From Halorubrum aethiopicum (GTDB lineage: Archaea > Halobacteriota > Halobacteria > Halobacteriales > Haloferacaceae), in contig NZ_LOAJ01000001.1 in assembly GCF_001542905.1 (NCBI RefSeq), positions 310,001-374,000 on the forward strand: a DNA stretch of 64,000 bases, in the 5' to 3' direction. Each line of letters begins with the position of its first letter. The stretch's first letter is position 1. Below, piece after piece: positions 32,721-47,504 of this stretch. Made by a program: the position numbers and the translations under genes. The notes beneath the pieces were generated by a model. The model saw only the letters and a list, made by a program, of their open reading frames with translations. It was not told the origin of the DNA and made no database searches.

Positions 32721-32825
32721 TGGTCGCTCGGCCGATTAAGTTCGTCGCTGTACGCGGTTCGGTTATATGTTGTCGGGGTCGAGGCCGGTTATCGATCCTC
32801 GATGGACGCCGACGGATCGGTAGCA

Positions 32826-33131
32826 AACGCCTCCAAAGCCCCAGTCGCTCGGCTGTACTGATCAACGAATACGACCGCGGAGAACACCACCAAAGCCCCA
32901 GCCGCGAGGAGGTCGTACGCTCGCTGCGCTCCTCACTCGGTCACTCACTTCGTTCGCTTCCTCGTTACGGTGCTTGCGTCGCCTACGACCTCCTCGCGGC
33001 TGCCCCTTTGAGTCCCACCCGACCGCCCCGCAACCGGACCTCACGCCTCCCCAACCTCGCGGCTCGCTCGGCTCGCCGCGTCCCTCGCGTGCTGCTCGCG
33101 CCCTGCCGGGCGCTCGCAGGCGCGCCACCGC
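32826..33131 (+). repeat. Structured intergenic repeat, copy 3
   Basis: The long stem is perfect over 18 bp: agccgcgaggaggtcgta (32900-32917) with tacgacctcctcgcggct (32984-33001). The second hairpin is cgcggc (33058-33063), 11-base loop, gccgcg (33075-33080); the third is gcgccc (33098-33103), tgcc, gggcgc (33108-33113). The 3' end of the element lies 27 bases from the kynU stop. The 105 bases between lhr and the element carry the lhr promoter region and nothing else visible. Confidence 0.87.
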
Positions 33132-33157
33132 CTCGCCACTGGGTGATCGACGTACCC

Positions 33158-34597
33158 TTACGTCACGCCGCCCTCGCCGACCTCGTACGCCAGGTGGTCC
33201 CCGCTCTCGAGGAGCGCCTCGATCCGGTCGACGACCTCCAGCACGTCCGCGAAGGCGGTGTACGGCGCGGCCGGACACACTCGCACGACGTTCGGGGGCC
33301 GGAAGTCGACGACGACGCCCCGGTCCGTCAGCGCCTCGCTCAACCGTTCGGCCTCGGGGTGTTCGAGGGCGACGTGCCCGCCGCGGGCGTCGCGCTCGCG
33401 GGGCGTGCCGATCGAGACCTCGGGGAGCCGCTCGTCGACCGAGGCGATCAGGAAGTCGGTGAGCGCGAGCGACTTCGCGCGGATCCGCTCGATGCCGGCC
33501 TCCCGGAGGAGTTCGACGGAGCCCTCGAGCGGCGCGGCGGCGAGCAGCGGCGGCGTGCCGATCTGCCACGCGCCGGCGGAGTCGGCGGGCGTGTAGGTCA
33601 GGTTCATCTCGAACTGCGTCGCCTTCTCGTGACCCCACCACCCCGCCAGCGCCGGGGTGAGGCCGTGGTGCCGCTCGGCGACGAACAGCGCGCCGATCGA
33701 TCCGGGGCCCGCGTTGAGGTACTTGTACGTACACCACACCGCGAAGTCGACGCCCGCGTCCGCGAACGCGTGCGGGACCGCCCCCACGGAGTGAGCGGCG
33801 TCGAACCCCGCGTACGCCCCGGCGTCGTGGGCCGCCTCCGTGATCCGCGCCACGTCGAACAGCTGTCCGGAGCGGTAGAGCGCGGTCGGCATGAAGACGA
33901 TCCCCACGTCGTCGTGCGCCTCGAGCGCGGCCTCGACGTCGGTCGGGTCGATCGTCCGCCCGTCGCGGCTCTCGACGGTCCGGAGCTTCTCCTCGGGATC
34001 GATCCCGCGCTGGCGGAGCTGTGCGCGGATCGCGTAGTGGTCGGAGGGGAAATCGAGGTCGTTGACCAACACCGCAGGCTCGACGTCGGGATCCCAGTCG
34101 CCGTCGGCGGCGTCGAATCCGGCCCGGTCCGGCCCGTTCCCGGCGCGCAGCTCGTCGAGGAACGTCCCGACGAGGGTATGGATGTTCACCGTGATCGAGT
34201 TGCCGACGACGACCTCGTCGGGGTCGGCACCGACGAGCGGGGCGAGCGCCGCACCGATCCGCTCGCCGACCTCGAACCACGGCGGGTCCGCGTCGGTCCA
34301 GCCGCCGATCAGCAGCTCGCGCCACTCGTCGACAACCCGGTCGAGGCTCGCGAGCGCGGCGTCGCTCGCGGGGCCGAGGGAGTTGCCGTCCATGTACAGC
34401 GCGTCGTCCGGGACCGAGAAGCGGTCCGCGAACGTCGAGAGCGGGTCGTCCGCGTCGAGACGGGCGGCGACCTCGACCGGGTCCGCGTCGAGCCCGCCGC
34501 GGTCGAGTGCCGCGGTCGCGGGGGCGTACGGGTCGTCCCCGGCGGCCGAGGACGGACCGCCCCCGGCGGGAGCGCCGTCGCCGTGTGAGTCGTCCAT
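33158..34597 (-). CDS. kynU: Kynureninase
   Basis: 479 residues, a PLP enzyme cleaving kynurenine to anthranilate and alanine in tryptophan breakdown. After an acidic, low-complexity leader (1-30): LYMDGNSLGP, VVVGNSITVNIHTLVGTFL, FDAAHSVGAVPHAFADAGVD, the PLP lysine in CTYKYLNAGPGSIGALFV, and HVALEHPEAERLSEAL near the end. Other kynurenine pathway genes are not in the window. The MFS gene just upstream on the same strand could be co-transcribed (60-base gap). Confidence 0.92.
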   Translation of the reverse strand: MDDSHGDGAPAGGGPSSAAGDDPYAPATAALDRGGLDADPVEVAARLDADDPLSTFADRFSVPDDALYMDGNSLGPASDAALASLDRVVDEWRELLIGGWTDADPPWFEVGERIGAALAPLVGADPDEVVVGNSITVNIHTLVGTFLDELRAGNGPDRAGFDAADGDWDPDVEPAVLVNDLDFPSDHYAIRAQLRQRGIDPEEKLRTVESRDGRTIDPTDVEAALEAHDDVGIVFMPTALYRSGQLFDVARITEAAHDAGAYAGFDAAHSVGAVPHAFADAGVDFAVWCTYKYLNAGPGSIGALFVAERHHGLTPALAGWWGHEKATQFEMNLTYTPADSAGAWQIGTPPLLAAAPLEGSVELLREAGIERIRAKSLALTDFLIASVDERLPEVSIGTPRERDARGGHVALEHPEAERLSEALTDRGVVVDFRPPNVVRVCPAAPYTAFADVLEVVDRIEALLESGDHLAYEVGEGGVT

Positions 34598-34657
34598 GGG
34601 AGGAGGGACGCCGCCGGCGACTAAGCCCTTCCGGGGAACGCCGGCGGCCGCGGCGGC

Positions 34658-35974
34658 TCACTCCCTGGACTCGCCGAACCGGTGGACGGACCCCGCGGCG
34701 AGCGCCCCGCAGACCGCGATCCCGGCGATCACGAAGAACAGCTCCCGGGTGCCGGCGACCGTGAGGACGAACCCCGCGAGTCCGGCCCCGAGCGAGCCGA
34801 CGCCGAAGATCGCGAGGTAGGTGTAGCCGAACGACAGCCCCCGCGTTCCCGGCGGCGAGTAGGTCGCGACGGTCGCCTGTGAGAGCGGCTGGACGGTGAA
34901 CAGCGCGACGCCGAGCAGCCCGGAGACGAGCAGGAACGACCAGACCTGCCCGGTGGCCGGCACGAACGCCAGCGCGAGCGTGGCCAGGATCGACATGAGG
35001 TAGACGAGTCCCCGCTCCGGCGGGATCCGGTCCGCGATCCGTCCGCCGAGGTACTGGCCGGGGACGCCGACCATCAGGATCGCGACGTAGAGGTACCGCG
35101 CCGGGTCGAACTCCTCGCCGAGCGCGCCCGACGGATCGACGATGCCGAGGTCGGCGAAGCCGCCGAGCGCGTCCCCGAGCAGGTCCGGGAGGAACGTGAG
35201 GAAGGTCCGGTAGTAGAGCCCGCTGAACGTGACGAACACCAACACGAGCGCGAACCCGAGCGTCAACAGCGACCGCGTGTCGCCGACGAAGCCGGCGAGC
35301 GAACTCCCCAGGCTCGCGTCTCCGTTCCCGTCCGCGGCGACGGCCGCGGCGTCTTCGTCGCTCGCGCGCTCGGAGTCGCCGTCGAGCGCCGCGTTGCCCG
35401 GCGCCGCGTCGGCACTCGCGAGCGCGGCGTCGACGTCGACGGTGAAGCCGTAGGCGGCGACGAGGAACGCCGGGACCGTGAGCAGCGCGGCGACGACCCG
35501 CCAGTCGAAGGCGAGGAGGAGCAGGACCGCCGCGAGGGGGCCGAGCGCGATCCCGAGGTTGCCGCCGATGCCGTGGTAGCCGAGCGCGGTCCCGCGGCGC
35601 TCGACCGCCTTCGAGAGCAGCGTGAGCCCCGCCGGGTGGTAGACGCTGGCGGTGACGCCCCACACCGCGAGCGCGAGCGCGAGCACCGGGAGGCTCGGGG
35701 CGGCCCCGACGAGCAGGAACGCGCCGCCCATCCCGAGCAGGCACGCGAGGATGACCGGCTTCGATCCGAAGCGGTCGACGACCACCCCGCCGGGGAGCGC
35801 GCCGACGCCGAAGAGCCCGTAGCCGACCGTGACGAGCGCGCCGAGCGTCGCGGCCGTGGTCGAGAACTCCGCGATCCACACCGTGAGCAGGATCGGGATC
35901 GATAGCTCGTAGGTGTGGACGAGCCCGTGGGAGCTCGCCGTGAAGGCGACGATGCGTCGCTCGTTCGCGTCCAT
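34658..35974 (-). CDS. Major facilitator superfamily transporter
   Basis: 438 residues, 12 membrane helices split by an acidic cytoplasmic loop (about 190-235, SERASDEDAAAVAADGNG). The loop 2-3 motif is GGVVVDRFGSKPVI, close to the MFS A motif G-x-x-x-D-R-x-G-R/S; a second copy is GGRIADRIPPERG. HGLVHTYELSIPIL and SVYHPAGLTLLS recall the sugar/nitrate or fosmidomycin-resistance-like branch. Substrate unknown; next to kynU, so an aromatic compound is conceivable. The start at 35974 is set by the first membrane helix; a much longer frame upstream is an artefact. Confidence 0.85.
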   Translation of the reverse strand: MDANERRIVAFTASSHGLVHTYELSIPILLTVWIAEFSTTAATLGALVTVGYGLFGVGALPGGVVVDRFGSKPVILACLLGMGGAFLLVGAAPSLPVLALALAVWGVTASVYHPAGLTLLSKAVERRGTALGYHGIGGNLGIALGPLAAVLLLLAFDWRVVAALLTVPAFLVAAYGFTVDVDAALASADAAPGNAALDGDSERASDEDAAAVAADGNGDASLGSSLAGFVGDTRSLLTLGFALVLVFVTFSGLYYRTFLTFLPDLLGDALGGFADLGIVDPSGALGEEFDPARYLYVAILMVGVPGQYLGGRIADRIPPERGLVYLMSILATLALAFVPATGQVWSFLLVSGLLGVALFTVQPLSQATVATYSPPGTRGLSFGYTYLAIFGVGSLGAGLAGFVLTVAGTRELFFVIAGIAVCGALAAGSVHRFGESRE

Positions 35975-36103
35975 GTGAACTCGAGGTTCATCGGGGACGG
36001 TGATAACCCCGCGGGTACATGAGGAGGTTGCCGGGACGGTCGAGTGGTTCGATTCCCGTTTCCCAACCGTTTTCGCCGTGTACGAGGAAGTCGGGATCCA
36101 GAC

Positions 36104-37813
36104 ATGGACCTCGTCCTGTTCAGTCACGTGGGCGTCTTCGCCGTCTCCGCGCTCGCCTGCGTGGCGAGTCTCCCGCGCGTGCGACGCATCCGACACGCCG
36201 ACACCCGCCGCGGGCTGGCGGCGCTCCTCCTCTCGGTCGCCGTCTGGTCGATCGGGTACGTCGGGTACCTGCTCGCTCCGGGCGCCGCGGGCAAGGTCGC
36301 GTGGTACACGGTGGGGTTCGTGTTCGCGTTCGTCGCCGTCGGCGCGTGGCTGTACTTCTGTGCCGCCTACACGGGTCGCCCGCCGGGACGGGCCCCGTAC
36401 CGGAACGCCGCGATAGCCGTCTTCTCGGTCTTCACCGCGCTCAAACTCACGAACGCGTTTCACGGCCTCTACTTCACCACCGCGTGGACGAGCGAGCCGT
36501 TTCCCCACCTCGCGATCCGCCACGAGTTGCTCTACTGGGTCGTCCTCGGACTGTCGTACGTCGTGATCGGCGTCGGCTTCTTCATGCTGCTCGAGCGGTT
36601 CTACTACACGGGTGCCGACAGTCGTCCGCTCGCGGCCCTCGTCGTCGTGACGGGGATCCCCGTCGTCGCGACGCTGTTCGGCGGCCGGGTGGAGTGGCTG
36701 CTTCCGCTGATGTACGAGCCGCCGGGGGTCGCGCTGTTCGCGGTCGGAACGCTCTTCGTCTACAGCAACCGCCTCGAGACGATCCGGCTCACCGGCGCGT
36801 CGGACAAGCCGGCCATCTACCTCGACGGCGACGGCCGCGTTCGGGACTACAACACGTCGGCACGGGAGATACTTCCGTCGCTCGCGGACTCGATCGGGGA
36901 GCCGATCGAGTCGGTAAACGCCGCGGTCGCCGACGGGCTGGAAACGGACGGCGTGTGTGCGATCGACCGAGAGGGCGAGCCGCGTTCCTACGAGGTCGTG
37001 AGCACGCCCTTCACCGTCGGAGACGTTCCGACCGGACGACTGGTGACGCTCACGGACGTGACCGACCGGGAGGCGTACCGACGGCGACTCGAGATGAAAA
37101 CGGAGCAGCTCGAGGCGCTGAACCGCGTCGTCAGACACGACATCCGGAACGACATGGCCGTGATCCTCGGCTGGATGGAGACGTTCGAGGGGCGCGTCGA
37201 CGACGACCTCGAGCCGGTCCTCGACCGCGTCCTGCGGAAGGGAACGCACGTCGTCGAGCTCACGGAGACCGCCCGCGACTTCATCGAGTCGCTGTCGACG
37301 GAGGGGGCAGTCGACCTCCGGCCGGTCGACGTGCGGGAGACGGTCGACACGGAACTGGCGGCCGTTCGCGAGTCGTTCCCGGACGCGACGTTTCGCGTCG
37401 ACGGCGAGATCCCGGACGTGCGGGTGCGCGGCAACCAGATGCTCTCGTCGGTTCTCCGAAATCTCCTCGAGAACGCGGTTCGCCACAACGACGAGGCGAC
37501 GCCCGAGGTCGCGGTCGCCGTCGAAACCGCCGGCGAGACCGTCAGGATCTCGGTTCGGGACAACGGGCCCGGCATACCCGACGAGCGGAAACGGGAGGTC
37601 TTCGGCAAGGGCGAGAAGGGACTGGACAGCCCCGGAACCGGCATCGGACTGTACCTCGTCCACGTGTTGACGAACCAGTTCGGCGGCGAGGTGTGGGTGG
37701 AAGACGCTGAGCCCAAGGGGTCGGTGTTCGTCGTCGAGCTCGTGAACGCGGACCGGGCCGAGGGTGCGGCGGACGACGCGGATCGGCCGCCCAGGTATCC
37801 CCCGAACCTATAG
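36104..37813 (+). CDS. Membrane sensor histidine kinase (7TM-PAS-HisKA-HATPase)
   Basis: 569 residues. Seven hydrophobic helices (about 1-220), the haloarchaeal 7TM histidine-kinase input domain, then a PAS-like domain (about 245-335, DKPAIYLDGDGRVRDYNTSA). The phosphorylated His is in RVVRHDIRNDMAVILGW; ATPase boxes are NLLENAVRHND, DNGPGIPDERKREVF and GTGIGLYLV. Divergent from the MFS gene over 129 bases. No response regulator gene adjoins, as is common in haloarchaea. Confidence 0.9.
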   Translation: MDLVLFSHVGVFAVSALACVASLPRVRRIRHADTRRGLAALLLSVAVWSIGYVGYLLAPGAAGKVAWYTVGFVFAFVAVGAWLYFCAAYTGRPPGRAPYRNAAIAVFSVFTALKLTNAFHGLYFTTAWTSEPFPHLAIRHELLYWVVLGLSYVVIGVGFFMLLERFYYTGADSRPLAALVVVTGIPVVATLFGGRVEWLLPLMYEPPGVALFAVGTLFVYSNRLETIRLTGASDKPAIYLDGDGRVRDYNTSAREILPSLADSIGEPIESVNAAVADGLETDGVCAIDREGEPRSYEVVSTPFTVGDVPTGRLVTLTDVTDREAYRRRLEMKTEQLEALNRVVRHDIRNDMAVILGWMETFEGRVDDDLEPVLDRVLRKGTHVVELTETARDFIESLSTEGAVDLRPVDVRETVDTELAAVRESFPDATFRVDGEIPDVRVRGNQMLSSVLRNLLENAVRHNDEATPEVAVAVETAGETVRISVRDNGPGIPDERKREVFGKGEKGLDSPGTGIGLYLVHVLTNQFGGEVWVEDAEPKGSVFVVELVNADRAEGAADDADRPPRYPPNL

Positions 37814-37840
37814 CGTGGCCGGCCGCAACCTCGACCCGAG

Positions 37841-38164
37841 ATGTCGTGGTACCTCCTGATCCTCGCCGGGCTGTTCGAGATCGCGTGGGCGATCGGCCTC
37901 GAGTACTCCGAGGGGTTCTCCAAACCCCTCCCGACCCTCGCGACCGGCGTCGCCATCGTCGTCAGCATGGTGCTTCTGGCGCGGGCCGTCGAGGACCTCC
38001 CCGTGGGCACGGCCTACGCGGTGTGGACCGGGATCGGGGCCGTCGGCACCGCGTCGCTCGGGGTCGTCCTCTTCGACGAGCCGGCCACGCTCGTCCGCGC
38101 CGGCTGTATCGGCCTCATCGTCGTCGGCATCGTCGGGCTCCACCTGGCGTCCGGCGGGCACTGA
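37841..38164 (+). CDS. SMR-family exporter, Gdx/SugE-like
   Basis: 107 residues, four membrane helices. The essential Glu13 is in LAGLFEIAWAIGLEYSEGF; this opening resembles the Gdx (SugE) guanidinium exporters more than the EmrE multidrug branch. GTAYAVWTGIGAVGTASLG is the family's second helix. Dimer acting as proton-coupled antiporter. Follows the kinase gene by 27 bases, so read-through is likely. Confidence 0.87.
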   Translation: MSWYLLILAGLFEIAWAIGLEYSEGFSKPLPTLATGVAIVVSMVLLARAVEDLPVGTAYAVWTGIGAVGTASLGVVLFDEPATLVRAGCIGLIVVGIVGLHLASGGH

Positions 38165-38210
38165 GGCGCGCCGAGGATCGCACGTCGGGGACCGGTCCGC
38201 CGGCGATGGC

Positions 38211-38774
38211 TCACACCGCGTCCAGATCGTAGGCGTCCGGGTGGTCGGGCTCCTTCCACCCCTCCTTGCCGCTCCAGGAGTCCACGTCGAGGCGGTAGAC
38301 CGCGGTCCGGTCGATGGACGCCTCGGACATCTCCTCGTAGTCCTCGCCCGGCGTCAACTGGGGAGCGAACTTCGCCATGAAGCGCTCGAGGACGCGGCGT
38401 TTGTCCGCCCGTTCCGTGACGAAGTCGACAGTCCCGTAGGCGACGACGCTCGAGTACTCGACGGTGAAGTTCACCGGCTCGTCGGCCGGGACGTACCGGC
38501 CCTTCTCGCTCGTCGTGAAGCTGGCTTTCGGCCCATCGCCCTCTGCGACGAGGTCGTGTGCGCGCCCGGCCTGCGCGCCGTGGAGGTAGATCGCGCCGGC
38601 CTCGGGATCGTAGACGAAGAGTTGCGTCACGAGGTGCGGCGTGTCGTCGTCGACGAGCCCGAGCACGCCCGTCTCCTGACCGGCGAGGAACTCCGGGATC
38701 CATTCGGGGTCGTCGATCGCCTTTCCCTGATAGCGGATCTCGTCGGAGACGTCGGCGGGCGTGTGTTCGGTCAT
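38211..38774 (-). CDS. Pyridoxamine 5'-phosphate oxidase-like flavin/F420-type protein
   Basis: 187 residues, split-barrel fold: VLGLVDDDTPHLVTQLFVYD, AIYLHGAQAGRAHDLVAEG, KASFTTSEKGRYVPADEPVNFTVEYSSVVAYG. Such proteins bind FMN or F420, sometimes as nitroreductase or antibiotic-resistance-like NimA proteins. Convergent with the SMR gene. The ATG at 38774 precedes a short AT-rich promoter. Substrate unknown. Confidence 0.82.
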   Translation of the reverse strand: MTEHTPADVSDEIRYQGKAIDDPEWIPEFLAGQETGVLGLVDDDTPHLVTQLFVYDPEAGAIYLHGAQAGRAHDLVAEGDGPKASFTTSEKGRYVPADEPVNFTVEYSSVVAYGTVDFVTERADKRRVLERFMAKFAPQLTPGEDYEEMSEASIDRTAVYRLDVDSWSGKEGWKEPDHPDAYDLDAV

Positions 38775-38805
38775 GCGGAGTGATAGCGATGACCATTATA
38801 AAATC

Positions 38806-38946
38806 TTACCGTGATTCGCAGGTCGCGTCGACGGGATCGAGGTCCGGAGCGTCTTCGACTGCGAGTTCCGCGAGTGCGTCGCCGAAGCCGAGATCGTCGT
38901 CCGAACCGTCTTCCTCATCGGTTGGCCGCCACTCTGTACTCGTGAC
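38806..38946 (-). pseudogene. Gene remnant: acidic C-terminal tail without a start
   Basis: On the minus strand 46 codons are open from 38946 to a TAA at 38806-38808, with a strongly haloarchaeal composition (EEDGSDDDLGFGDALAELAV). A TAG lies directly before the first codon and there is no ATG or GTG start, so this looks like the 3' end of a gene whose front part has been lost, at the left edge of the AT-rich island. The parent family is not recognised. Confidence 0.4.
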
Positions 38947-38987
38947 CTAGAGATCACGAACTGGACGAAGCTCGGAGACACGCACTA

Positions 38988-39910
38988 GCGGAGTCATTCG
39001 CGAGAAGTGTAGATTCTATTTAATCGACCACTTGTTTGAGATCTGGTAGTGTTGTGGGTGGGATCGTCAAAGATTGAAGGGTTTTCCCATCTGTATTCCA
39101 CCTTTATCGGTGGCAATATGGAATAAAACACAGTTCTTTGGAGATGCTAATACGATTTTACCACTACCCTTGACCGTCCCTCCTCGCGATGAAGTTATCC
39201 TAGAAGGATAAATTATCAGTTCTTCATTGTCATAATAGAATTTACCTTCAAACTGAATAACATCTGATTCTTTGTCATATACTAGCTTTAATCTGATATT
39301 TTCATCTGGATCCCATATTTTGAGTTCATTGCTTCTATAAACGAGATCCCAAACACGGTCTGTATAAGCTTTCCACTCATTGTTTGTGACTTCGGCTATT
39401 AATTCATTATCTTGATTATATATCTCTAGATTGAATGTGATCAAACCAGAGTTATATTCTAATACAAACAAATCTTTTTTGTTTATTTTGACTAGAGCAT
39501 ATTCTCCTTCCTGCGGTACTTCGCAAGTCAGATCTGCTATTTCAAATTTGGGCTGTTCTGACTCAAAATAGAATAGAGAATCAACAATTTCATCGTTATG
39601 TGGATTATTTTTTAAATAGTATAATCTTTCGCGAGATATTGCGCCATCATCTGCTAGCCTGTGATGGTTTGGACATAATGTGATCATATGCTCTGGGTTA
39701 TTATGATCTCGTTCATTTTTTGGAATGATATGATGATAGTCAACTAATGGAGAACCGCAAACAGCACAGCCATGATTCACTTCCGTTCTTAGGTCTCGGC
39801 GTACTGCTGCCGGAATATATCGATCCATTTGTTCTATGATGTCGTTCCTGCATAATGAATAACATGTGGCAATCTCACTTGTGTCACTAACAGTGAGCGA
39901 TTGACTCCGC
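38988..39910. mobile_element. AT-rich HNH gene unit bounded by imperfect 14-base inverted repeats
   Basis: gcggagtcattcgc (38988-39001) and, inverted, gcggagtcaatcgc (complement of 39897-39910) match at 13 of 14 bases and enclose about 900 bases holding a single gene. The inside is visibly AT-rich against a very GC-rich genome, which indicates recent arrival. No transposase and no clear target duplication at the ends are seen. A related motif (ctaacagt...gactccgc) recurs at about 39956-39976, so boundaries may be nested. Confidence 0.5.
39067..39828 (-). CDS. HNH endonuclease-domain protein, AT-rich, probably acquired
   Basis: 253 residues. The N-terminal 60-70 residues are an HNH nuclease: the zinc Cys pair CAVCG, VDYHHIIPK (catalytic His), then HMITLCPNHHRLADDG. 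The remaining 180 residues are beta-rich (KFEIADLTCEVPQEGEYALVKI, LITFNLEIYNQDNELIAEVTNN) and end with VLFHIATDKGGIQMGKPFNL; I do not recognise this domain. Unlike its neighbours it is rich in Lys, Asn and Ile, and codons end in A/T. It could be a restriction-type, homing or anti-phage nuclease; no partner gene sits beside it. Confidence 0.82.
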   Translation of the reverse strand: MDRYIPAAVRRDLRTEVNHGCAVCGSPLVDYHHIIPKNERDHNNPEHMITLCPNHHRLADDGAISRERLYYLKNNPHNDEIVDSLFYFESEQPKFEIADLTCEVPQEGEYALVKINKKDLFVLEYNSGLITFNLEIYNQDNELIAEVTNNEWKAYTDRVWDLVYRSNELKIWDPDENIRLKLVYDKESDVIQFEGKFYYDNEELIIYPSRITSSRGGTVKGSGKIVLASPKNCVLFHIATDKGGIQMGKPFNL

Positions 39911-40181
39911 GAAAACGAATTGGGTACGTTAACTGTGTGACCTTTGCCATATCTCTAACAGTTGACCGACTCCGCTGGTCGGCAGTCAATGGCGAGGTCG
40001 CGCTTGTGTGGCGGTCGAGATCAACACCTCTCGACAGAGTACAGACTGTGTATCTGAGAAGACACCAGCCTCGGCTCCTTGTCTCTGAAAGACCGAGTAA
40101 AATTCAGATGGACTCGCGGGGTCCCCGCGAGCGGAGCGAGCGGGGGCACGCGAGGAAACGAGACGAACGAAGTGAGTCGAG
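39911..40181. other. Gap between the HNH unit and tRNA-Ala
   Basis: No supported gene; an open frame on the plus strand (39901-40200) has no recognisable domain. The gap holds a second copy of the ctaacagt/gactccgc motif (about 39956-39976) and a 19-base palindrome ctcgcggggtccccgcgag (40113-40131) downstream of the tRNA 3' end, which may stop tRNA transcription. gaacgaagtgag (near 40166) also occurs, inverted, inside the structured repeats. Confidence 0.5.
40109..40121. repeat. Partial duplicate of the tRNA-Ala 3' end (candidate att remnant)
   Basis: tggactcgcgggg at 40109-40121 is identical to 40182-40194, the 3' terminal 13 bases of the tRNA-Ala gene. Elements that integrate into tRNA genes leave such copies. 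Only 60 bases lie between the two, so any element at this site has been lost or the copy is a chance product of local duplication. Confidence 0.45.
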
Positions 40182-40253
40182 TGGACTCGCGGGGATTTGA
40201 ACCCCGGGCCTCTTCCTTGCGAAGGAAGCGATCTGCCGCTGATCTACGAGCCC
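40182..40253 (-). tRNA. tRNA-Ala (anticodon CGC)
   Basis: 72 bases, no intron. Acceptor stem GGGCTCG/CGAGTCC with the G3-U70 pair that marks alanine tRNA, D arm GATC/GATC, anticodon stem CTTCC/GGAAG with loop TTCGCAA (anticodon CGC, codon GCG), T arm CGGGG-TTCAAAT-CCCCG, discriminator A. CCA is not encoded. Confidence 0.97.
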
Positions 40254-40456
40254 GCACCCGAAACGAGTCGCCGTCCGTACTTGTACCTTACTTTTCTGTG
40301 ATCCGCGAGCGAGAGGTTCACACCCGGCGAGCCGGCGACCAGGTGTACTGCGACCGCCGCGACCGACGCCCTTAGGTGACCGCCGGTCCGAGTTCGACAC
40401 GAAACGGGGGGACGCGACGCGCGATCCCACCTCTCGTAACGATTCTGAGATCCATC

Positions 40457-40471
40457 GCATATTCGTTATGC
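40457..40471 (+). promoter_or_regulatory. Candidate RbkR operator overlapping the ribK promoter
   Basis: gcata-ttcgt-tatgc is a perfect 5+5 inverted repeat, and its right arm is part of the likely TATA box (gttatgcttt, about 30 bases before the ATG at 40501). Riboflavin kinases with an N-terminal winged helix (RbkR) repress riboflavin genes in archaea, so autoregulation at this site is plausible; it is not proven by the sequence. Confidence 0.5.
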
Positions 40472-40500
40472 TTTTGCGTGCGGAGGTTCTCGATCGGGGT

Positions 40501-41262
40501 ATGTCAGAAGCGACGGCGGCGACCGCCGACCCGGCGGCGATGGCGGCGTTGAAACACGTCGCGCTCGCGGGCGGGCTGACGGAGACGAAGGTGTCGTGTG
40601 CGGCGCTCGGCGACCGCCTCGACGCGTCGACCCAGACCGCCTCCAGACGCCTCCAGACGCTCGAGTCCGCGGGGCTGCTCGAACGCGACGTGGTCGGCGA
40701 CGGCCAGTGGGTCCGGGTCACCGACGCGGGCGAGGCCGCCCTCCGTGGCGAGTACGCCGACTACCGCCGGCTCTTCGAGAGCGACGTCGAACTCGTGCTT
40801 CGGGGGGCCGTCACCGGCGGGATGGGCGAGGGCCGTCACTACATCACCCTGCCGGGGTACGCGGAGCAGTTCGCTTCCCGGCTGGGGTACGAGCCGTTCC
40901 CGGGGACGCTCAACCTCGAACTCGACGAGGAGAGCGTCCGCCGGCGCGGCGAGATCGCGGGGATCGACGCCGTCCCGATCGACGCCTGGGAGGACGAGGA
41001 CCGCACCTACGGCGCGGCCGCGTGCTACGCCGTCACCCTCGTCGCCGACGGCGGCCGCTACGAGGACGCCCACGCGATCGTGCCCGACCGCACCCACCAC
41101 GACGACGACAAGCTCGAGGTGATCGCCCCCGACGAGCTCCGGGCGGAACTCGACCTCGCGGACGGCGACGCCGTCGAGGTCCGCGTCGAGGCGACCTCGC
41201 GGGCGGACGCGCTCGATGCGGACACCGACGACCCCGACGAGCCGCTCGAGGAGGTGGCCTGA
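40501..41262 (+). CDS. ribK: CTP-dependent riboflavin kinase with N-terminal winged helix (RbkR)
   Basis: 253 residues. Residues 14-90 form a winged helix ([28 protein letters not shown]). The catalytic domain at about 97-230 is the archaeal CTP-using riboflavin kinase: [51 protein letters not shown]. It makes FMN and, through the DNA-binding domain, likely senses the product to control riboflavin genes. The stop overlaps the ribB start by one base. Confidence 0.92.
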
Positions 41263-42026
41263 TGCGCGCCGACGCCGAGGGTCCCGAGGCGGACCCCGAC
41301 CCGGCCGACGCGCCGGCCGCGGTCGGCGACGCGGACGGGGACGCCGATGCGGACACGGACGCGGCCGCCGCGGTCGACCGCGCGCTGGCGGCGTTCCGCG
41401 CCGGCGACCCGGTCTGTGTCCACGACTTCGCGGACCGCGAGGGAGAGACGGACATCGTCTACCCCGCGGGCGCGGTCGACGCCGCGGCCGTGGCGCACAT
41501 GCGCAACGACGCCGGCGGGCTGATCTGCGTCGCCGTCGACGACGCGGTCGCCGACGCGTTCGGGCTCCCGTTCCTCGCGGACGCGCTCGACCACCCCGCG
41601 GTGAACGACGACCCCGCCTACGACGACCGCTCCTCCTTCTCGCTGCCGGTGAACCACCGCGAGACGTTCACGGGGATCACGGACGCGGACCGGGCGCTGA
41701 CGATCACGGAGGTGGCGAACGCGGCCGCGGCGGCCGCCGCCGACCCGGAGGGGTACACCCCCGAGGACTTCGCGGCGTCGTTCCGCGCGCCCGGCCACGT
41801 CCACGTCCTGCGCGGCGCGGTCGAGGGGCTCGCGGACCGCGTGGGGCACACCGAACTGGGGCTGGCGCTCGCCGAGGCGGTCGACGCCCCGCCCGCCGCC
41901 GTGGTGTGTGAGATGCTCGACGACGAGACCGGCGACGCGCTCGCGCCCGCCGACGCCGCCGCCTACGCGGAGCGGCGCGGGATCCCCTACGTCGAGGGCG
42001 CGGCCCTCGTCGAGGCGCTGCGGTAA
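41262..42026 (+). CDS. ribB: 3,4-dihydroxy-2-butanone-4-phosphate synthase
   Basis: 254 residues: an acidic 35-residue leader, then DFADREGETDIVYPAG (the acidic metal loop), MRNDAGGLICVAV, FSLPVNHRETFTGITDADRALTI, FRAPGHVHVLRG and GHTELGLALAEA. Supplies the four-carbon unit of the lumazine ring from ribulose 5-phosphate. Coupled to ribK. A truncated copy of the structured repeat starts 17 bases after its stop. Confidence 0.92.
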   Translation: MRADAEGPEADPDPADAPAAVGDADGDADADTDAAAAVDRALAAFRAGDPVCVHDFADREGETDIVYPAGAVDAAAVAHMRNDAGGLICVAVDDAVADAFGLPFLADALDHPAVNDDPAYDDRSSFSLPVNHRETFTGITDADRALTITEVANAAAAAAADPEGYTPEDFAASFRAPGHVHVLRGAVEGLADRVGHTELGLALAEAVDAPPAAVVCEMLDDETGDALAPADAAAYAERRGIPYVEGAALVEALR

Positions 42027-42042
42027 CTGACCTCCGCGCTTT

Positions 42043-42180
42043 GCGGTGGCGCGCGCCTGCGAGCGCCCACCGGGTGCGAGCCAGCACGCGCGAGGGAGTC
42101 GCGAAGAGAGTGAGCGACGAGGCTGGGGAGGCATGAGGTGCTGTGCGGTCGGGCGGGACTCGCGACTGGGGCTTCGGAGC
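42043..42180 (-). repeat. Structured intergenic repeat, copy 4 (inverted, shortened)
   Basis: Reverse orientation relative to copies 1-3. The third hairpin is gcgccc (42063-42068) with gggtgc (42072-42077), one G-T pair on this strand. The second hairpin is gtcgc (42098-42102), 11-base loop, gcgac (42114-42118). The long first stem is missing: ccccagtcgcgag joins directly to the gagtccc block, a deletion across the stem. The element begins 17 bases after the ribB stop. Confidence 0.78.
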
Positions 42181-42272
42181 CGTCGATCGCCAGCTTTCCG
42201 GTATAGCGTTGTATCGACGAGCAGGTTCCCTCGATCCGGCCGACACCGGCGCTCCGAACGGCGTCCCTCCGG

Positions 42273-42719
42273 TCACCGATCCGTGCGTATCGCCGCGACC
42301 CGCCTGGATACCCAGCCGACGAGCCAGTACTGCCAGACCGCCGTTCCGGCCGCGCCGAGGGCGAACGACGCGACGACGACCAGCGGCGACGCGCCGGACC
42401 ACCCGAACCTGATCCCGAGGTACGTACCCCCCACCAGCGGCCACGCGAGCACCGCGGCCGCCGGGATCACGACGACGGCGATCGACAACACGTCGGCGAG
42501 GGCGACGACGAGGCCGAGGGCGGTGACCCCGGCGAGCGCGGCGGTCTTGACCGCCCGCGACCCCGACGGCGTCGGGACGCGGTCGGGCGCGAGGGCGACG
42601 GCGGCCGCGGCCGCGACGTATGCGAACACCGGCAGCGCGGCGACGAACAGCGCCTTGACGAACAAGGGCCACGGATCGAGCGCGACGAGTCCGCCGTAGC
42701 CGAGGACGTACCCCGCCAC
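42273..42719 (-). CDS. Hypothetical membrane protein
   Basis: 148 residues from a GTG at 42719; a longer frame adds a Pro/Arg-rich leader from another GTG (42839) that does not look translated. Four or five hydrophobic helices: VAGYVLGYGGLVAL, LFVAALPVFAYVAAAAAVAL, AALAGVTALGLVVALADVLSI and AVLAWPLVGG. No family recognised. Convergent with ribB. Confidence 0.6.
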   Translation of the reverse strand: MAGYVLGYGGLVALDPWPLFVKALFVAALPVFAYVAAAAAVALAPDRVPTPSGSRAVKTAALAGVTALGLVVALADVLSIAVVVIPAAAVLAWPLVGGTYLGIRFGWSGASPLVVVASFALGAAGTAVWQYWLVGWVSRRVAAIRTDR

Positions 42720-42875
42720 GAGGAGGGGAGGAGGTGCTGACGCCGGGGGCGGAGTGCGTCGCGGACGGCTGCGAGGGACCCGGCCATGCCGATATGGCCG
42801 TGGCGGCGCGTGATAGGCCTTCGGGGCTACGGGGCGCACGGCGACCGTTCCGGCAGTCCTCGGTCGGTTGTCACA

Positions 42876-42884
42876 GTTTTAAGC
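42876..42884 (+). promoter_or_regulatory. TATA box of ilvE
   Basis: gttttaagc is centred 27 bases before the ATG at 42907, predicting a leaderless mRNA. Confidence 0.65.
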
Positions 42885-42906
42885 CCGCCGACCGCAACGA
42901 GCGAGT

Positions 42907-43836
42907 ATGGGCTTCGACGAGATGGACGTCGACACGATCTGGAAGAACGGGGAGTTCCTCGACTGGGAGGACGCGACCACCCACGTCCTCACGCACGCGC
43001 TCCACTACGGCACCGGCGTGTTCGAGGGACTCCGGAGCTACGAGACCGAGCAGGGTCCCGCGATCTTCCGGCTCGAGGAGCACCTCGACCGGCTGTTCGA
43101 CTCCGCGAAGATGTACGACATGGAGATCGACCACTCCCGCGAGGAGATCACGGAGGCGATCCTCGAACTCCTCGACCGGCAGGACCTGACCTCCTGTTAC
43201 ATCCGGCCGATCGCCTACTACGGCTACGACTCGCTCGGCGTCTCCCCGGGGGACTGTCCGACCGACCTCGTGCTCGCCGCCTGGCCGTGGGGGACGTACC
43301 TCGGCGAGGAGGCCTTAGAGGAGGGCGTCGACGTGATGGTCTCCTCCTGGCGGAAACACGCCTCCTCGCAGGTCCCGACGAACGTGAAGACCACCGGGCT
43401 CTACGTCAACTCCATGCTCGCGGGCGAGGAGGCCCGCCGGAACGGCTACGTCGAGGCGATCGTCTTAAACAAGGAGGGGAACGTCGCGGAGGGCCCCGGC
43501 GAGAACGTGTTCATGGTCAACGACGGCGAGGTGTACACCACCGGCCAGGCGCAGTCGATCCTCGAGGGGATCACCCGCGACACCGTGATCACGCTGGCCG
43601 AGGAGCGCGGCTACACCGTCCACGACGAGGCCGTCATCTCGCGCGGACAGCTGTACACCGCCGACGAGCTGTTCTTCACCGGCTCGGCCGCCGAGGTGAC
43701 GCCGATCCGCTCCGTCGACGACACGGAGATCGGAAGCGGCACGCGCGGTCCCGTGACGGAGGAGCTTCAGGAAGCGTTCTTCGAGGTCATCGAGCGCCGA
43801 ACCGACGACCACGACGAGTGGTTCACGTACCTCTAG
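42907..43836 (+). CDS. ilvE: Branched-chain amino acid aminotransferase
   Basis: 309 residues, PLP fold type IV. THALHYGTGVFEGLRSYE is the family opening, the PLP lysine lies in QVPTNVKTTGLYVNSML, and the cofactor loop is NVAEGPGENVFMVNDG; ITRDTVITLAEERGY and FFTGSAAEVTPI complete the signature. Transaminates leucine, isoleucine and valine with 2-oxoglutarate. Monocistronic. Confidence 0.93.
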   Translation: MGFDEMDVDTIWKNGEFLDWEDATTHVLTHALHYGTGVFEGLRSYETEQGPAIFRLEEHLDRLFDSAKMYDMEIDHSREEITEAILELLDRQDLTSCYIRPIAYYGYDSLGVSPGDCPTDLVLAAWPWGTYLGEEALEEGVDVMVSSWRKHASSQVPTNVKTTGLYVNSMLAGEEARRNGYVEAIVLNKEGNVAEGPGENVFMVNDGEVYTTGQAQSILEGITRDTVITLAEERGYTVHDEAVISRGQLYTADELFFTGSAAEVTPIRSVDDTEIGSGTRGPVTEELQEAFFEVIERRTDDHDEWFTYL

Positions 43837-43913
43837 GTCGGCTCACGGCGCGGTAACCCCTCTCGTCGCCAGCCGCCGGTGCGGGTCCGTCACGACCCGC
43901 CACCCTCCAGCCG

Positions 43914-44651
43914 TCACGAACCGCCACTCCCGGTCGACTCGTCGCCCTCGGCGCTCGCGGATCCCCCGTCGCCCTCCGGCCGATCCCCCGCCGCCTTCCC
44001 CGGATGGGCGACGCCGGGACGGTGGTCCTCGGGTCCGTCGTCCGCGGGCGGGCGCTCCTCCTCAACGGGGATCTGGTGGGCGGACTCGCCGAAGCCCGCC
44101 GAGAGGATCCGCGTCATCCCCTCCTCGACGCTCTCGCCGGTGTCCTCGACCCGCTCGGGCTCGACCTCGATGACGAAGCCGGTGGTGATGTTCGGCGCGG
44201 TCGGCATGAAGAGGACGATCTTCCCGTCGCGGGTCTTCTTGCCCGTCCGGAACGCGGTCATCCGGATGCCGGGCCACGTCTCGAGGTACACCGGGTTCTG
44301 AAGCTCGTCGGTGCCGGAGATGGCGGTCTCGGCCGCCAGCTTCGAGGCGTTGTACACCACGCGGAGCGCGGGGATCCGGTTTATCGCGTCGTCGACCTTC
44401 GCCTCCGCGAGCCGGCCGAGCGTCGTCCGCATGAAGTAGCCGACCGCGAGCACGAGCGTCGAGAAGACGGCGACGGCGATGACGACCCGCGAGATCGGCT
44501 CCAGCGGAGCGGGGATCCAGTTCGGCTGGAGCGCGTCGATGAGCGGGATCGACGCGATGTGGAGGTAGATCCACCGGATGACGAGGAGCAGAACGAGGAG
44601 CGGGGCCAACACGATGAGCCCGCTGGCGAAGTCGCGTTTCCACGTGGACAT
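43914..44651 (-). CDS. DUF502 family membrane protein
   Basis: 245 residues. Two membrane helices near the N-terminus (LIVLAPLLVLLLVIRWIYL and VVIAVAVFSTLVLAVGYF), then the conserved DUF502 domain (PALRVVYNASKLAAETAI, TGFVIEVEPERVEDTG) and a disordered acidic tail. Function unknown; DUF502 proteins occur across bacteria, plants and archaea. Convergent with ilvE. Confidence 0.85.
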   Translation of the reverse strand: MSTWKRDFASGLIVLAPLLVLLLVIRWIYLHIASIPLIDALQPNWIPAPLEPISRVVIAVAVFSTLVLAVGYFMRTTLGRLAEAKVDDAINRIPALRVVYNASKLAAETAISGTDELQNPVYLETWPGIRMTAFRTGKKTRDGKIVLFMPTAPNITTGFVIEVEPERVEDTGESVEEGMTRILSAGFGESAHQIPVEEERPPADDGPEDHRPGVAHPGKAAGDRPEGDGGSASAEGDESTGSGGS

Positions 44652-44775
44652 CTATCGTCTCGCTATGCGACGGGGACGCTTAAGAGGGCTTCTCATGTCG
44701 GGCGACCGAGCGGTCCGCGGGCGACCGGAGCGACGCAGTCGTTCGTCCCCGGTCACCGGGCCGACGCTCACCGGC

Positions 44776-45615
44776 TCACGCCCCGGCGACCGCCCGCAAC
44801 GCGAACGTCAGGTTCTCCTTCCGCTCGCGCACGCGCCGGTAGAAGTACGAGAGCCACTTGTTCCCGTAGGGCGCGTACTGGTTCACGTCGACGCCCTGTC
44901 GCGCGAGGTCGCGCTGGGCGTCCTCGCGGACGCCCATCAGCATCTGGATCTCGTAGTCGGTGTCGTGTTCGGCCGCGAGCCGGTTGGCGAGCGAGATCAT
45001 CTCCGGGTCGTGACTGCCGACGGCGACGCCCCGATCCCGACGTTCGAAGAGGAACTCGATGTCGCCGCGGTACGCCTCGTCGACATCGGCCTTGTCCGTG
45101 TACGCGATCGAGTCGGGCTCGTCGTACGCCCCCTTCACGAGCCGGACCACGCCGGGAACGTCGACGAGGCGCTCGAGGTCCTCGCGGGTCCGTTTGAGAT
45201 TCGACTGGACGCACTGGCCGACGCTCCAGGGGTAGTCCGCCGCGATCGACTCGAAGGCGTCGAGGGTGGCGTCCGTGGTGTCGGCGTCCTCCATGTCACA
45301 CCAGACGAACGCGTCGCGCTCGTGGGCGTGTGCGACCAGGTCGCGATACTGCTCCTCGAAGAGGTCGGCGGAGACGTCGAGGCCGATCTGCGAGGGTTTC
45401 ACGGAGATACACGCGTCGAGGTCCGTGGCGGCCAGGTCGTCGAGGAGCCGCCGGTACGCGTCGGCGTCGGCCCGGGCGTCGGCCCGGGCGTCGTAGTGTT
45501 CCCCGAGCAGGTTCAGGATGACGCCGACGCCCTCCTCGTTGCGGGCCCGCGCGTGCTCGAGCGCCTCGGGAACGCTCTCGCCGGCGACGAACCGGCGCGC
45601 GATCGGGGGTATCAT
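44776..45615 (-). CDS. Proline dehydrogenase
   Basis: 279 residues, a monofunctional PRODH barrel. [67 protein letters not shown] and the C-terminal [22 protein letters not shown] (FAD and proline-binding Arg pair) are typical. Oxidises proline to pyrroline-5-carboxylate with FAD. A short Ala-Arg-Ala-Asp repeat (about 45-52) comes from a 12-base tandem repeat. Confidence 0.92.
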
Positions 45616-45694
45616 ACCGGGAGGTGGGTTCGCCCCGACTTGAGCGTTGTCACCCGTCGATCCGAGCGGGCGTCGAGGCTCGGCCGCCCGTCCC

Positions 45695-45740
45695 CTCGTC
45701 GGATCCGCGGCCCTCTCGTCGGATCCGCGGTTTATATGAC
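45695..45740 (+). promoter_or_regulatory. carS promoter with a duplicated 16-base upstream block
   Basis: ctcgtcggatccgcgg occurs at 45695-45710 and again at 45715-45730 (period 20); the TATA box tttatatg follows directly at 45731-45738, about 28 bases before the ATG at 45762. The second block occupies the place of the B-recognition element. Confidence 0.6.
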
Positions 45741-45761
45741 CCGGACGGGCGTGGGGCCGGC

Positions 45762-46304
45762 ATGGTCGGTTCCCTCGTCGCGACCGCGTTCTGGGCGATG
45801 GTGCCAGCGTACGTGCCGAACAACGCCGCGGTGCTCGCCGGCGGCGGTCGCCCCATCGACGGCGGCCGCGAGTGGCGGGGCGCGCGGCTGCTCGGCGACG
45901 GGAAGACGTGGCGGGGCACCGCGGTCGGGACGGCCGTCGGCGTGCTCGTCGCGCTCGGGCTCAACGCCGTCGTCGACCCCGCGAGCGCCGCCATCGGCGT
46001 CGACCTCCCGACGTTCGAGCTCCCCGCGGCGGTCGCGCTCGCGTTCGGCGCGATGGCCGGCGACATCGGCGCGTCCTTCCTCAAGCGGCGCTCCGGCCGC
46101 GAGCGCGGGGCGTCGTTCCCCGGACTCGACCAGCTCGACTTCGTCGTCGGCGCGCTCGTGGCCGCCTTCCTCGTCGCGCCCGACTGGGCGACGGCCGTCT
46201 TCACGCTCCCGGTGCTCGCCGTCGTGGCCGTGATGACGCCCGTCCTCCACGTGGCGACGAACGTCGCGGCCTACGCGCTCGGGCTGAAGAACGAGCCCTG
46301 GTGA
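45762..46304 (+). CDS. carS: CDP-archaeol synthase
   Basis: 180 residues, about five membrane helices. Family signatures: [16 protein letters not shown] near the start, [14 protein letters not shown], and the C-terminal [15 protein letters not shown], which includes the catalytic Asp. CarS activates unsaturated archaetidic acid with CTP to make CDP-archaeol, the branch point for polar ether lipids. Leaderless promoter. Confidence 0.92.
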
Positions 46305-46353
46305 GCGGGTCCGGTCGAGGGCGAGCCCCGATCGGAGATGAGCGCTCGCGCGG

Positions 46354-46644
46354 TTACCGACTCCGACCGGAAGCGAGATCGACGATCACCTGGTCGCCGA
46401 CCGCAGTGACCGCGTCACCGGGCAGCCGGATGGTTTCGTCGTCGACGTCGCGTTCACCGTCCGTGTCGCGTTCGGCTGACTCGAGCGCGTCGGGTTCGGG
46501 TACGTTCGGATCGGGATCGACGAGGAGCGTCTCGAAGTCTCCCGATCGCGGGTCGATGGTGAGGTTGTGGACGGTACCGAGCTTCCTGCCGTCTGCGCTG
46601 AGCACCGGCTTCTCGGGGAGGGCGCTCGCGAGGACCGTGGACAT
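46354..46644 (-). CDS. PRC-barrel domain protein
   Basis: 96 residues. The small beta-barrel pattern is LPEKPVLSADGRKLGTVHNL, then DFETLLVDPDP and IRLPGDAVTAVGDQVIVD. PRC-barrel proteins bind RNA or other proteins in archaea (for example with the cell-division protein CdpB family) but the partner cannot be inferred. Convergent with carS. Confidence 0.78.
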   Translation of the reverse strand: MSTVLASALPEKPVLSADGRKLGTVHNLTIDPRSGDFETLLVDPDPNVPEPDALESAERDTDGERDVDDETIRLPGDAVTAVGDQVIVDLASGRSR

Positions 46645-46799
46645 GACACCGGGAGGTGGGCGGGAACGCGACAAAAAAGTACTGGATCGGCTGACGGCGG
46701 CGTTCGTCCGTGACCGATCGATCGGATCCGTCCGGACGGACGGCCGGATCCGGAACCACGGAAAGATACTTATGCTGCCGTGGCATACGTTGTCACGCA

Positions 46800-46979
46800 A
46801 TGTCTAGCGCACCCAGCACGAACGACGACGTGTTCGACGAGTTCCTGTCCGACCGGGGCCACGAGACGGAGATCGTACGCTGGGAGCGATCGTATAACAA
46901 GCTTCAGTGCCCCGAGTGTGGTGCGCTTCACCCGGAGGGCACCGCCAGTTGCTCCGTCTGCGACTGGCGGCCGACCTGA
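46800..46979 (+). CDS. Zinc-finger microprotein with one Cys4 site
   Basis: 59 residues. A short acidic start (NDDVFDEFLSDRGH), then WERSYNKLQCPECGALHPEGTASCSVCDW with two CxxC pairs about 15 apart. Haloarchaea have many such small proteins, several with stress or biofilm phenotypes; this one resembles the HVO_0416-like type. TATA gatacttatg (46765-46774) about 30 bases upstream supports the ATG at 46800 and a leaderless transcript. Confidence 0.8.
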   Translation: MSSAPSTNDDVFDEFLSDRGHETEIVRWERSYNKLQCPECGALHPEGTASCSVCDWRPT

Positions 46980-47067
46980 CGCCGACGGCACCGATCGACC
47001 GGTTAGCGGTTTTCTTTCCGCCGCGTGCGGCGGCAGTATTATATGTAACGATTAGCTAGTGGGGCGT

Positions 47068-47226
47068 ATGCCGACCTGCCAGAACTGCGGTTCGTTCGTC
47101 ACGGCCGACTACGTCAGGGTGTTCACGCCGAACGACGTGGACCGACCCCGCGTCTGTCCGGGCTGTGAGGACCTGGTCCGTGACGGTGCCGACGTGCGAG
47201 AAGCGCGCGCGACTCGAAGCAACTGA
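47068..47226 (+). CDS. Zinc-finger microprotein, second
   Basis: 52 residues: MPTCQNCGSFV at the start and RVCPGCEDLVRDG later make a Cys4 zinc ribbon. The tail is charged and short. TATA gtattatatg (47036-47045) is 27 bases before the ATG, a leaderless arrangement. The gene follows the other microprotein by 88 bases, each with its own promoter. Function unknown; the family (DUF7563-like) is common in haloarchaea. Confidence 0.78.
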   Translation: MPTCQNCGSFVTADYVRVFTPNDVDRPRVCPGCEDLVRDGADVREARATRSN

Positions 47227-47474
47227 CGCCTCCGACCGACTTCATCGACCGATTCCACCGATCGAGTCCTCCGCCGACCCCCGCCGCTCGCTCGGACCCG
47301 CCCTCCGTCCCGCGTCCGCCCGGCACGGTCCCCCGCCGACCGACGGGTCCGCGTCCGTCCGGCACGGTGTTCGCGTTCGTCAGCGACGGCCCCGCGTTCG
47401 TCCGTGACCGGTCCCCGCGTCCGTGCCCGTCGGGGGCGTAGGCGGCCCGAACGCCCCGTCACCGAGCCACGGCG

Positions 47475-47480
47475 TTTAAG
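47475..47480 (+). promoter_or_regulatory. TATA box of the UvrD/Rep helicase gene
   Basis: tttaag centred about 28 bases before the ATG at 47505. The 240 bases before it hold only imperfect direct repeats (cgcgtccgtccggcacggt-like) and no gene. Confidence 0.55.
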
Positions 47481-47504
47481 GAGAGTCGCGATCAGTAGTC
47501 GGTA

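What the first reader, a model, noticed from the sequence alone, without database searches (positions are those of the whole stretch)
38988..39910. AT-rich HNH gene enclosed by 14-base inverted repeats
gcggagtcattcgc and its near-perfect inverted partner (13/14) bracket a single HNH gene whose base composition is unlike the rest of the window. The 180-residue C-terminal domain is not one I recognise. A minimal unit of nuclease plus terminal repeats could be a selfish or homing-like element, or a one-gene defence module. No known transposase is inside.
Basis: partly seen in the sequence, partly recalled or inferred. Interest (0 to 1): 0.62.

Follow-up and report, generated by a model that had tools for sequence, protein, structure and literature searches.

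The report
Virus cargo gene in a provirus relic
The AT-rich nuclease gene is not a tiny transposon but the surviving cargo of a decayed archaeal membrane-virus provirus, sitting in a slot where related viruses carry ever-changing, often antiviral, genes.

Summary
The 14-base arms (13/14) and the AT-rich HNH gene are real, but the arms are not element ends. The left arm is coding sequence: codons R-S-H-S-R of the last 28 codons (two TAGs) of a pleolipovirus gene (HRPV-9 ORF21 type, "ORF9-like"). The right arm straddles the edge of a second viral remnant, the intergenic tail next to the replication gene (DUF7845, Rep-Arvir). An arm pair this good occurs in 82% of the window's other 1.4-kb segments and is absent from sister loci.

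The real unit is the space between the two genes that mark betapleolipoviruses. I extracted 45 such slots across haloarchaea: most hold different, AT-rich cargo (mean GC 13.6 points below flanks), including matches to PD-T7-4, PDC-S45, TIR, Mrr and methyltransferase families; a few are empty. Two sister species share one provirus relic (flanks ~93% identical) but carry different cargo in opposite orientation, so cargo is swapped in place. In the window the virus has decayed beside tRNA-Ala while the HNH ORF kept every family-invariant residue.

The protein belongs to a broad single-gene family common in phages: an HNH domain resembling Cap5/McrA plus an unmatched beta-domain. Most likely an antiviral nuclease; that function is inferred, not shown.

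The parts
38211..38774 (-). Chromosomal flanking gene (187 aa), conserved beside tRNA-Ala in sister species
   Evidence: ORF list; 88-91% identical DNA in G039, G049, G011, G036, G025
38804..38942 (.). Fragment of another mobile element, found in G039:C2, G025:C11 and G010:C43 beside an HRPV-9 ORF8-like gene
   Evidence: 84-88% identity; ORF8 neighbours
38939..39015 (+). Remnant of the 3' end of the pleolipovirus ORF9-like gene (HRPV-9 ORF21, phrog_2095): TRDLEITNWTKLGDTH*RSHSREV*
   Evidence: 82% aa identity to HRPV-9 ORF21 residues 101-122; profile match to model positions 98-125 with 2 TAG stops; translation
38988..39001 (.). Left 14-base arm; part of the viral coding sequence (codons R-S-H-S-R), not a terminal repeat
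39016..39905 (.). Cargo slot content, GC 0.37, bounded by the two conserved viral remnants
   Evidence: alignment of 18 homologous slots; GC
39067..39828 (-). HNH cargo gene, 253 aa; keeps the family-invariant residues R14, C21, C24, H33, C52, D161
39604..39810 (-). HNH domain (residues 7-75), resembling that of CBASS Cap5, EcoKMcrA and ScoMcrA
   Evidence: model mean pLDDT 87.6; Foldseek PDB; profile search of PDB sequences
39190..39591 (-). C-terminal all-beta domain (residues 80-213) with no structural match
39897..39910 (.). Right 14-base arm; straddles the edge of the cargo and the conserved right remnant; not conserved in other slots
39906..40034 (.). Decayed remnant of the intergenic region next to the 3' end of the DUF7845 (Rep-Arvir) gene
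   Evidence: matches in other provirus loci, e.g. 39993-40034 at 83-86%; alignment
40109..40121 (.). 13-base copy of the tRNA 3' end (TGGACTCGCGGGG), repeated at 40182-40194; attachment-site-like
40181..40253 (-). tRNA-Ala (CGC), variable insertion site in the genus
   Evidence: variable content in sister species

Best explanation
The HNH gene is cargo in the accessory slot of a betapleolipovirus-type provirus that once lay next to tRNA-Ala and has since decayed. Shown: the gene lies between remnants of the two viral landmarks that flank such cargo elsewhere; the slot holds different AT-rich genes in related viruses and proviruses; cargo can be replaced while the flanks stay. Inferred: replacement works by ordinary homologous recombination between the conserved flanks of a resident provirus or relic and an incoming virus; the HNH protein is a stand-alone nuclease that cuts the DNA of competing viruses, with the beta-domain choosing the target, so it benefits first the virus and then the host that retains the relic.
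For: Both flanks recur together, 0.8-5.4 kb apart, around other genes in same-genus genomes. The left one is the 3' end of the HRPV-9 ORF21 type gene and the right one adjoins the HRPV-9 ORF23 type gene. HRPV-9 itself has a cargo ORF22 there. 45 slots order-wide: 37 with GC more than 0.05 below flanks, mean drop 0.136; five short near-empty ones of 284-503 bp. Cargo matches: PD-T7-4 E=1e-69, PDC-S45, ThsB/PDC-S66 TIR, TIR effector, MTase + PDC-S02, Mrr_cat, AAA_5, DUF4145, DUF6414 in two genera. G037 and G017: same locus (93.6% over 5.5 kb on the left, 93.4% over 2.1 kb on the right and continuing beyond), same relic, different cargo in opposite orientation. HNH family: 160 loci in genomes and viral contigs, no conserved partner gene, HNH part close to defence nucleases. 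Precedent: HHPV4I, an HNH-containing m6A-dependent restriction enzyme of a betapleolipovirus (PMC10101028).
Against: No antiviral activity is known for this HNH family and PADLOC gives no significant match to it. HHPV4I lies at another place in its virus. Many slot genes have no recognised domain and some are pilin-like or membrane proteins, so the slot is not purely defensive. The window relic is so decayed that the Rep gene itself is gone and the site has been rearranged (38804-38942). No enrichment test against control gene sets was run.
Confidence: 0.8

Rival explanations
1. A minimal selfish element: nuclease gene with 14-base terminal inverted repeats that moves by itself (IS/MITE-like).
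For: Arms 13/14 at both sides, one gene inside.
Against: Left arm is viral coding sequence, present without the HNH gene and with quite other cargo elsewhere; arms absent at other slots; chance level in this window; no transposase.
Confidence: 0.02
2. A homing endonuclease gene that cuts cargo-free slots and copies itself in by repair.
For: HNH nucleases include homing enzymes; cargo-free slots exist.
Against: The slot holds dozens of unrelated genes, most without a nuclease; homologs sit in unrelated places without a shared neighbour gene; 3D neighbours of the HNH part are Cap5 and McrA.
Confidence: 0.05
3. A viral helper nuclease (replication, packaging or host takeover) rather than a defence gene, in the same cargo slot.
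For: HNH proteins are common in tailed phages and this family is frequent in viral contigs; HNH-like genes of unknown role are reported in epsilonpleolipoviruses (PMC10599561).
Against: Not conserved among betapleolipoviruses; shares the slot with restriction, TIR and PD-T7-4 genes; kept intact where the virus is lost.
Confidence: 0.2
4. The HNH gene is a neutral passenger: AT-rich DNA that landed in a relic and will decay.
For: The flanks are pseudogenised and the relic is old.
Against: ORF is full length with all family-invariant residues; cargo ORFs also persist in other decayed relics (G036, G051, G037, G017, G044).
Confidence: 0.15

Closest known systems
Betapleolipovirus HRPV-9 (KY965934) and relatives, proposed as Deltapleolipovirus by Alarcon-Schumacher et al. 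2023 (PMC10599561)
   Same: Same two flanking landmarks in the same order and orientation, with a cargo gene (ORF22) between
   Different: HRPV-9 is a complete virus with another cargo; the window holds only short remnants of both landmarks
P2-like phage and P4-like satellite hotspots of antiviral systems (PMC9122126)
   Same: Fixed place in a temperate virus where unrelated defence genes replace each other
   Different: Here in unrelated archaeal membrane-vesicle viruses (Trapavirae); cargo identified by sequence only, no activity tested
HHPV4I, m6A-dependent restriction endonuclease of HHPV4 (PMC10101028)
   Same: HNH nuclease encoded by a betapleolipovirus, proposed to exclude other viruses
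   Different: SRA-wH-HNH architecture and another genomic position; the window protein has an N-terminal HNH and an all-beta C-terminal domain
EcoKMcrA / ScoMcrA type IV restriction enzymes and CBASS effector Cap5
   Same: Closest HNH domain folds and sequences
   Different: Their sensor domains are not found here; the beta-domain of this family is unmatched
phrog_6544
   Same: Phage protein family covering residues 1-183 (E=2.4e-28)
   Different: No function assigned

Membership tests
Betapleolipovirus-type provirus | Two hallmark ORFs (HRPV-3 ORF6 and ORF9 types) downstream of the core block | tested here: inconclusive
   Window keeps 28 codons of the first and only the intergenic tail beside the second; intact pairs in sister genomes. 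A relic, not a functional member.
Betapleolipovirus-type provirus | Conserved core block (spike, NTPase etc.) and an integrase | tested here: not met
   tblastn of all 28 HRPV-9 ORFs over window 30001-50000 finds only the ORF21 tail
Betapleolipovirus-type provirus | Integration at a tRNA gene | tested here: inconclusive
   tRNA-Ala at 40181-40253 with a 13-base repeat of its 3' end and variable content in sisters; the integration event itself is not reconstructed
Viral accessory-gene (defence) hotspot | Fixed flanks with unrelated, exchangeable content | tested here: met
   45 slots, almost no cargo similarity between slots, in-place swap G037/G017
Viral accessory-gene (defence) hotspot | Cargo shown to give antiviral protection | not testable with these tools
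   Only family matches
Transposon / MITE with terminal inverted repeats | Inverted repeats at the ends of every copy | tested here: not met
Transposon / MITE with terminal inverted repeats | Target-site duplication and empty site with the same edges | tested here: inconclusive
   No clean empty site for this gene alone; sister sites differ over other and mostly larger stretches (335 bp to about 21 kb between the same flanks)
HNH homing endonuclease | Sits inside its recognition site in a conserved host gene, intron or intein | tested here: not met
   Lies beyond the end of the ORF9-like gene in a slot shared with unrelated genes
Type IV restriction enzyme (McrA-like) | HNH domain with cysteine zinc site | tested here: met
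   C21, C24, H33, C52, H56; HNH hits to McrA
Type IV restriction enzyme (McrA-like) | Modified-base sensor domain | tested here: inconclusive
   The beta-domain has no match to any known sensor

The most novel reading that the evidence does not exclude
The space between the two hallmark genes of betapleolipoviruses is an order-wide exchange locus for antiviral genes that keeps working after the virus dies: host lineages retain the relic and swap its cargo by recombination with later viruses. The HNH plus beta-domain protein is one such cargo and represents an undescribed single-gene antiviral nuclease family.
Probability: 0.35. Interest if true: 0.72.

Novelty: new variant of a known kind. Interest (0 to 1): 0.52.

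Why it matters
Hotspots of antiviral genes are documented in tailed phages and their satellites (PMC9122126); none of the papers I could search describes one in pleomorphic archaeal viruses. The slot gives a simple address, between the ORF9-like gene and the DUF7845 gene, at which to look for unknown archaeal defence genes. The in-place swap at a dead provirus suggests that relics can go on serving as exchange sites. The widespread HNH plus beta-domain family becomes a concrete candidate to test.

Tried and rejected
Terminal-repeat element: rejected by chance level and absence elsewhere. Close relatives of the HNH protein by single-sequence scan: none in genome contigs and one weak in viral contigs; the alignment-based scan then found many. 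Structure from the single sequence failed (mean pLDDT 35.6); with 66 sequences it succeeded. The relative in G076 (41%, L002) was checked for the same slot: it lies beside an Orc1/Cdc6-like and a serine-resolvase-like ORF instead, with no HRPV-9 homologs nearby. Conserved partner gene of the HNH family: none. A strict empty site for the HNH gene alone was not available.

Full report
Observation. The arms at 38988-39001 (GCGGAGTCATTCGC) and 39897-39910 (GCGATTGACTCCGC) exist and are 13/14 complementary. Between them is a single ORF, 39067-39828 on the minus strand, 253 aa, with an HNH_2 domain and GC 0.36 in a window of GC 0.70. The pair is not remarkable: 82% of other 1.4-kb segments of this window contain at least one as good.

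What the flanks are. A DNA search of the same genus showed that 38939-39014, which contains the left arm, and 39906-40022, which starts within the right arm, recur together in many genomes, 0.8-5.4 kb apart, around other genes. The left stretch is the 3' end of a 131-133 aa gene, phrog_2095, whose closest virus relative is ORF21 of Halorubrum pleomorphic virus 9 (92% between the G025 copy and HRPV-9). The right stretch lies beyond the 3' end of a DUF7845 / phrog_3288 gene, HRPV-9 ORF23, a family recently shown to be the replication initiator Rep-Arvir (PMC13107129). The literature names two extra ORFs as the mark of betapleolipoviruses (PMC7547991; HRPV-3 ORFs 6 and 9 in PMC10599561); these are the same two genes by my profiles. 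In the window the first is cut to 28 codons with two TAG stops: TRDLEITNWTKLGDTH*RSHSREV*. The left arm is the stretch coding R-S-H-S-R. No other HRPV-9 protein is found in window 30001-50000.

The slot. HRPV-9 carries ORF22 between the two landmarks. I built profiles of both landmark proteins, searched loci from the genus, the order and the isolated viruses, and extracted 45 convergent pairs (a few are near-identical pairs such as L178/L179, so they are not 45 independent events). The space between them ranges from 284 to 5,371 bp. In 37 of 45 the slot is more than 5 GC points below the two landmark genes; the mean drop is 13.6 points. Five slots of 284-503 bp (including SNJ2) hold no gene or only a short ORF. 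Cargo proteins of different slots are almost all unrelated to each other. Recognised cargo: PD-T7-4 in G027 (E=1.3e-69); trypsin-like PDC-S45 candidates (one confirmed individually in G017; two members of the set match); TIR proteins in L193 (PDC-S66, ThsB) and L125 (TIR effector); adenine methyltransferase plus Mrr-like PDC-S02 plus a small HNH_2 protein in G026; a methyltransferase / type IIG-like protein in G025; Mrr_cat in L208; AAA_5 ATPase with a DUF4145 protein in G047; DUF6414 independently in G036 and L195. Several others have no known domain, and some are membrane or pilin-like proteins.

Exchange. G037 and G017 carry the same relic at the same chromosomal place: 93.6% identity over 5.5 kb to the left, 93.4% over 2.1 kb to the right starting at the slot edge and continuing beyond, both with the same truncated last 82 residues of the Rep gene. 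Their cargoes are different trypsin-like genes (33% identity) in opposite orientation, with sharp boundaries at the end of the ORF9-like gene and at the GGTACCTTAG edge on the other side. So cargo has been replaced while the relic stayed. That recombination with an incoming virus did this is inference. Relics at the window's own tRNA-Ala site carry yet other cargo in G036 (DUF6414) and G051 (a 279-aa protein that looks membrane-bound).

The site. tRNA-Ala(CGC) at 40181-40253 is a variable place in the genus: the stretch between the same two flanks is 335 bp in G039, 2.6 kb in G025, 4.1 kb in G036 and about 21 kb in G049. A 13-base copy of the tRNA 3' end at 40109-40121 is attachment-site-like. 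There is therefore no clean empty site for the HNH gene alone, but the boundaries seen elsewhere are not the arms.

The protein. Alignment-guided scans found relatives in 80 genome loci and 80 viral loci (both lists capped). The 123 near-full-length relatives have a median length of 264 aa, 68 of them non-redundant. Six residues are invariant: R14, C21, C24, H33, C52, D161; N150 and H56 nearly so. The window protein has all of them. No neighbour gene is shared across the family, so it probably works as a single gene. The model built on the alignment of 66 sequences has mean pLDDT 87.6: HNH domain at residues 7-75, all-beta domain at 80-213. PDB sequence and fold searches bring up only the HNH part, with the type IV restriction enzymes ScoMcrA and EcoKMcrA and the CBASS effector Cap5 (all Foldseek E-values weak, above 0.001, TM about 0.25 because only the HNH part aligns). 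The beta-domain has no convincing match.

Mechanism. Shown: cargo position, provirus decay, intact HNH ORF, cargo variability, one in-place swap. Inferred: the protein cuts DNA of competing viruses and the beta-domain sets specificity. A betapleolipovirus HNH enzyme with modification-dependent restriction is already known (HHPV4I, PMC10101028), which makes this plausible, though it has another architecture and position. I put about 0.55 on an antiviral role; the 0.8 in the best explanation is for the whole with the provirus-cargo identity (about 0.93) as its core.

Novelty. The kind, a viral hotspot for accessory antiviral genes, is known from P2 and P4 (PMC9122126). I found no report of one in pleolipoviruses in the searchable papers; that is absence in an open-access library, not proof. 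Host genus: the virus and plasmid relatives are from Halorubrum, so the window is probably Halorubrum; this was not tested directly.

Noticed in passing
window 38804-38942: Fragment (84-88% identical) shared with three other loci of the genus, next to an HRPV-9 ORF8-like gene; joined to the viral remnant with a 4-base overlap. The site is a patchwork of at least two elements.
   Followed up: partly
L202 1010-2395 (G154:C2): A complete ORF9-like gene, a 210-aa cargo ORF, then a second copy of the ORF9-like 3' end (101 bp, 85% identical): two relics in tandem or a duplication made by cargo insertion.
   Followed up: partly
L131 14764-15240: HRPV-9 ORF26 is a diverged paralog of the ORF9-like protein (profile match); similar second copies are seen in several proviruses.
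   Followed up: no
L178 and L179 (G299:C1 near 266 kb and 302 kb): Two apparently identical provirus slots with pilin-like cargo about 36 kb apart in one chromosome.
   Followed up: no
L111/L118 (G037, G017): Both relics keep exactly the last 82 residues of Rep and sit near a type IV pilin-like gene, so the deletion probably predates the split of the two species.
   Followed up: partly
window 40094-40203 and loci of G029, G013, G049: GC-rich repeated hairpin segments beside the tRNA recur many times across the genus.
   Followed up: no
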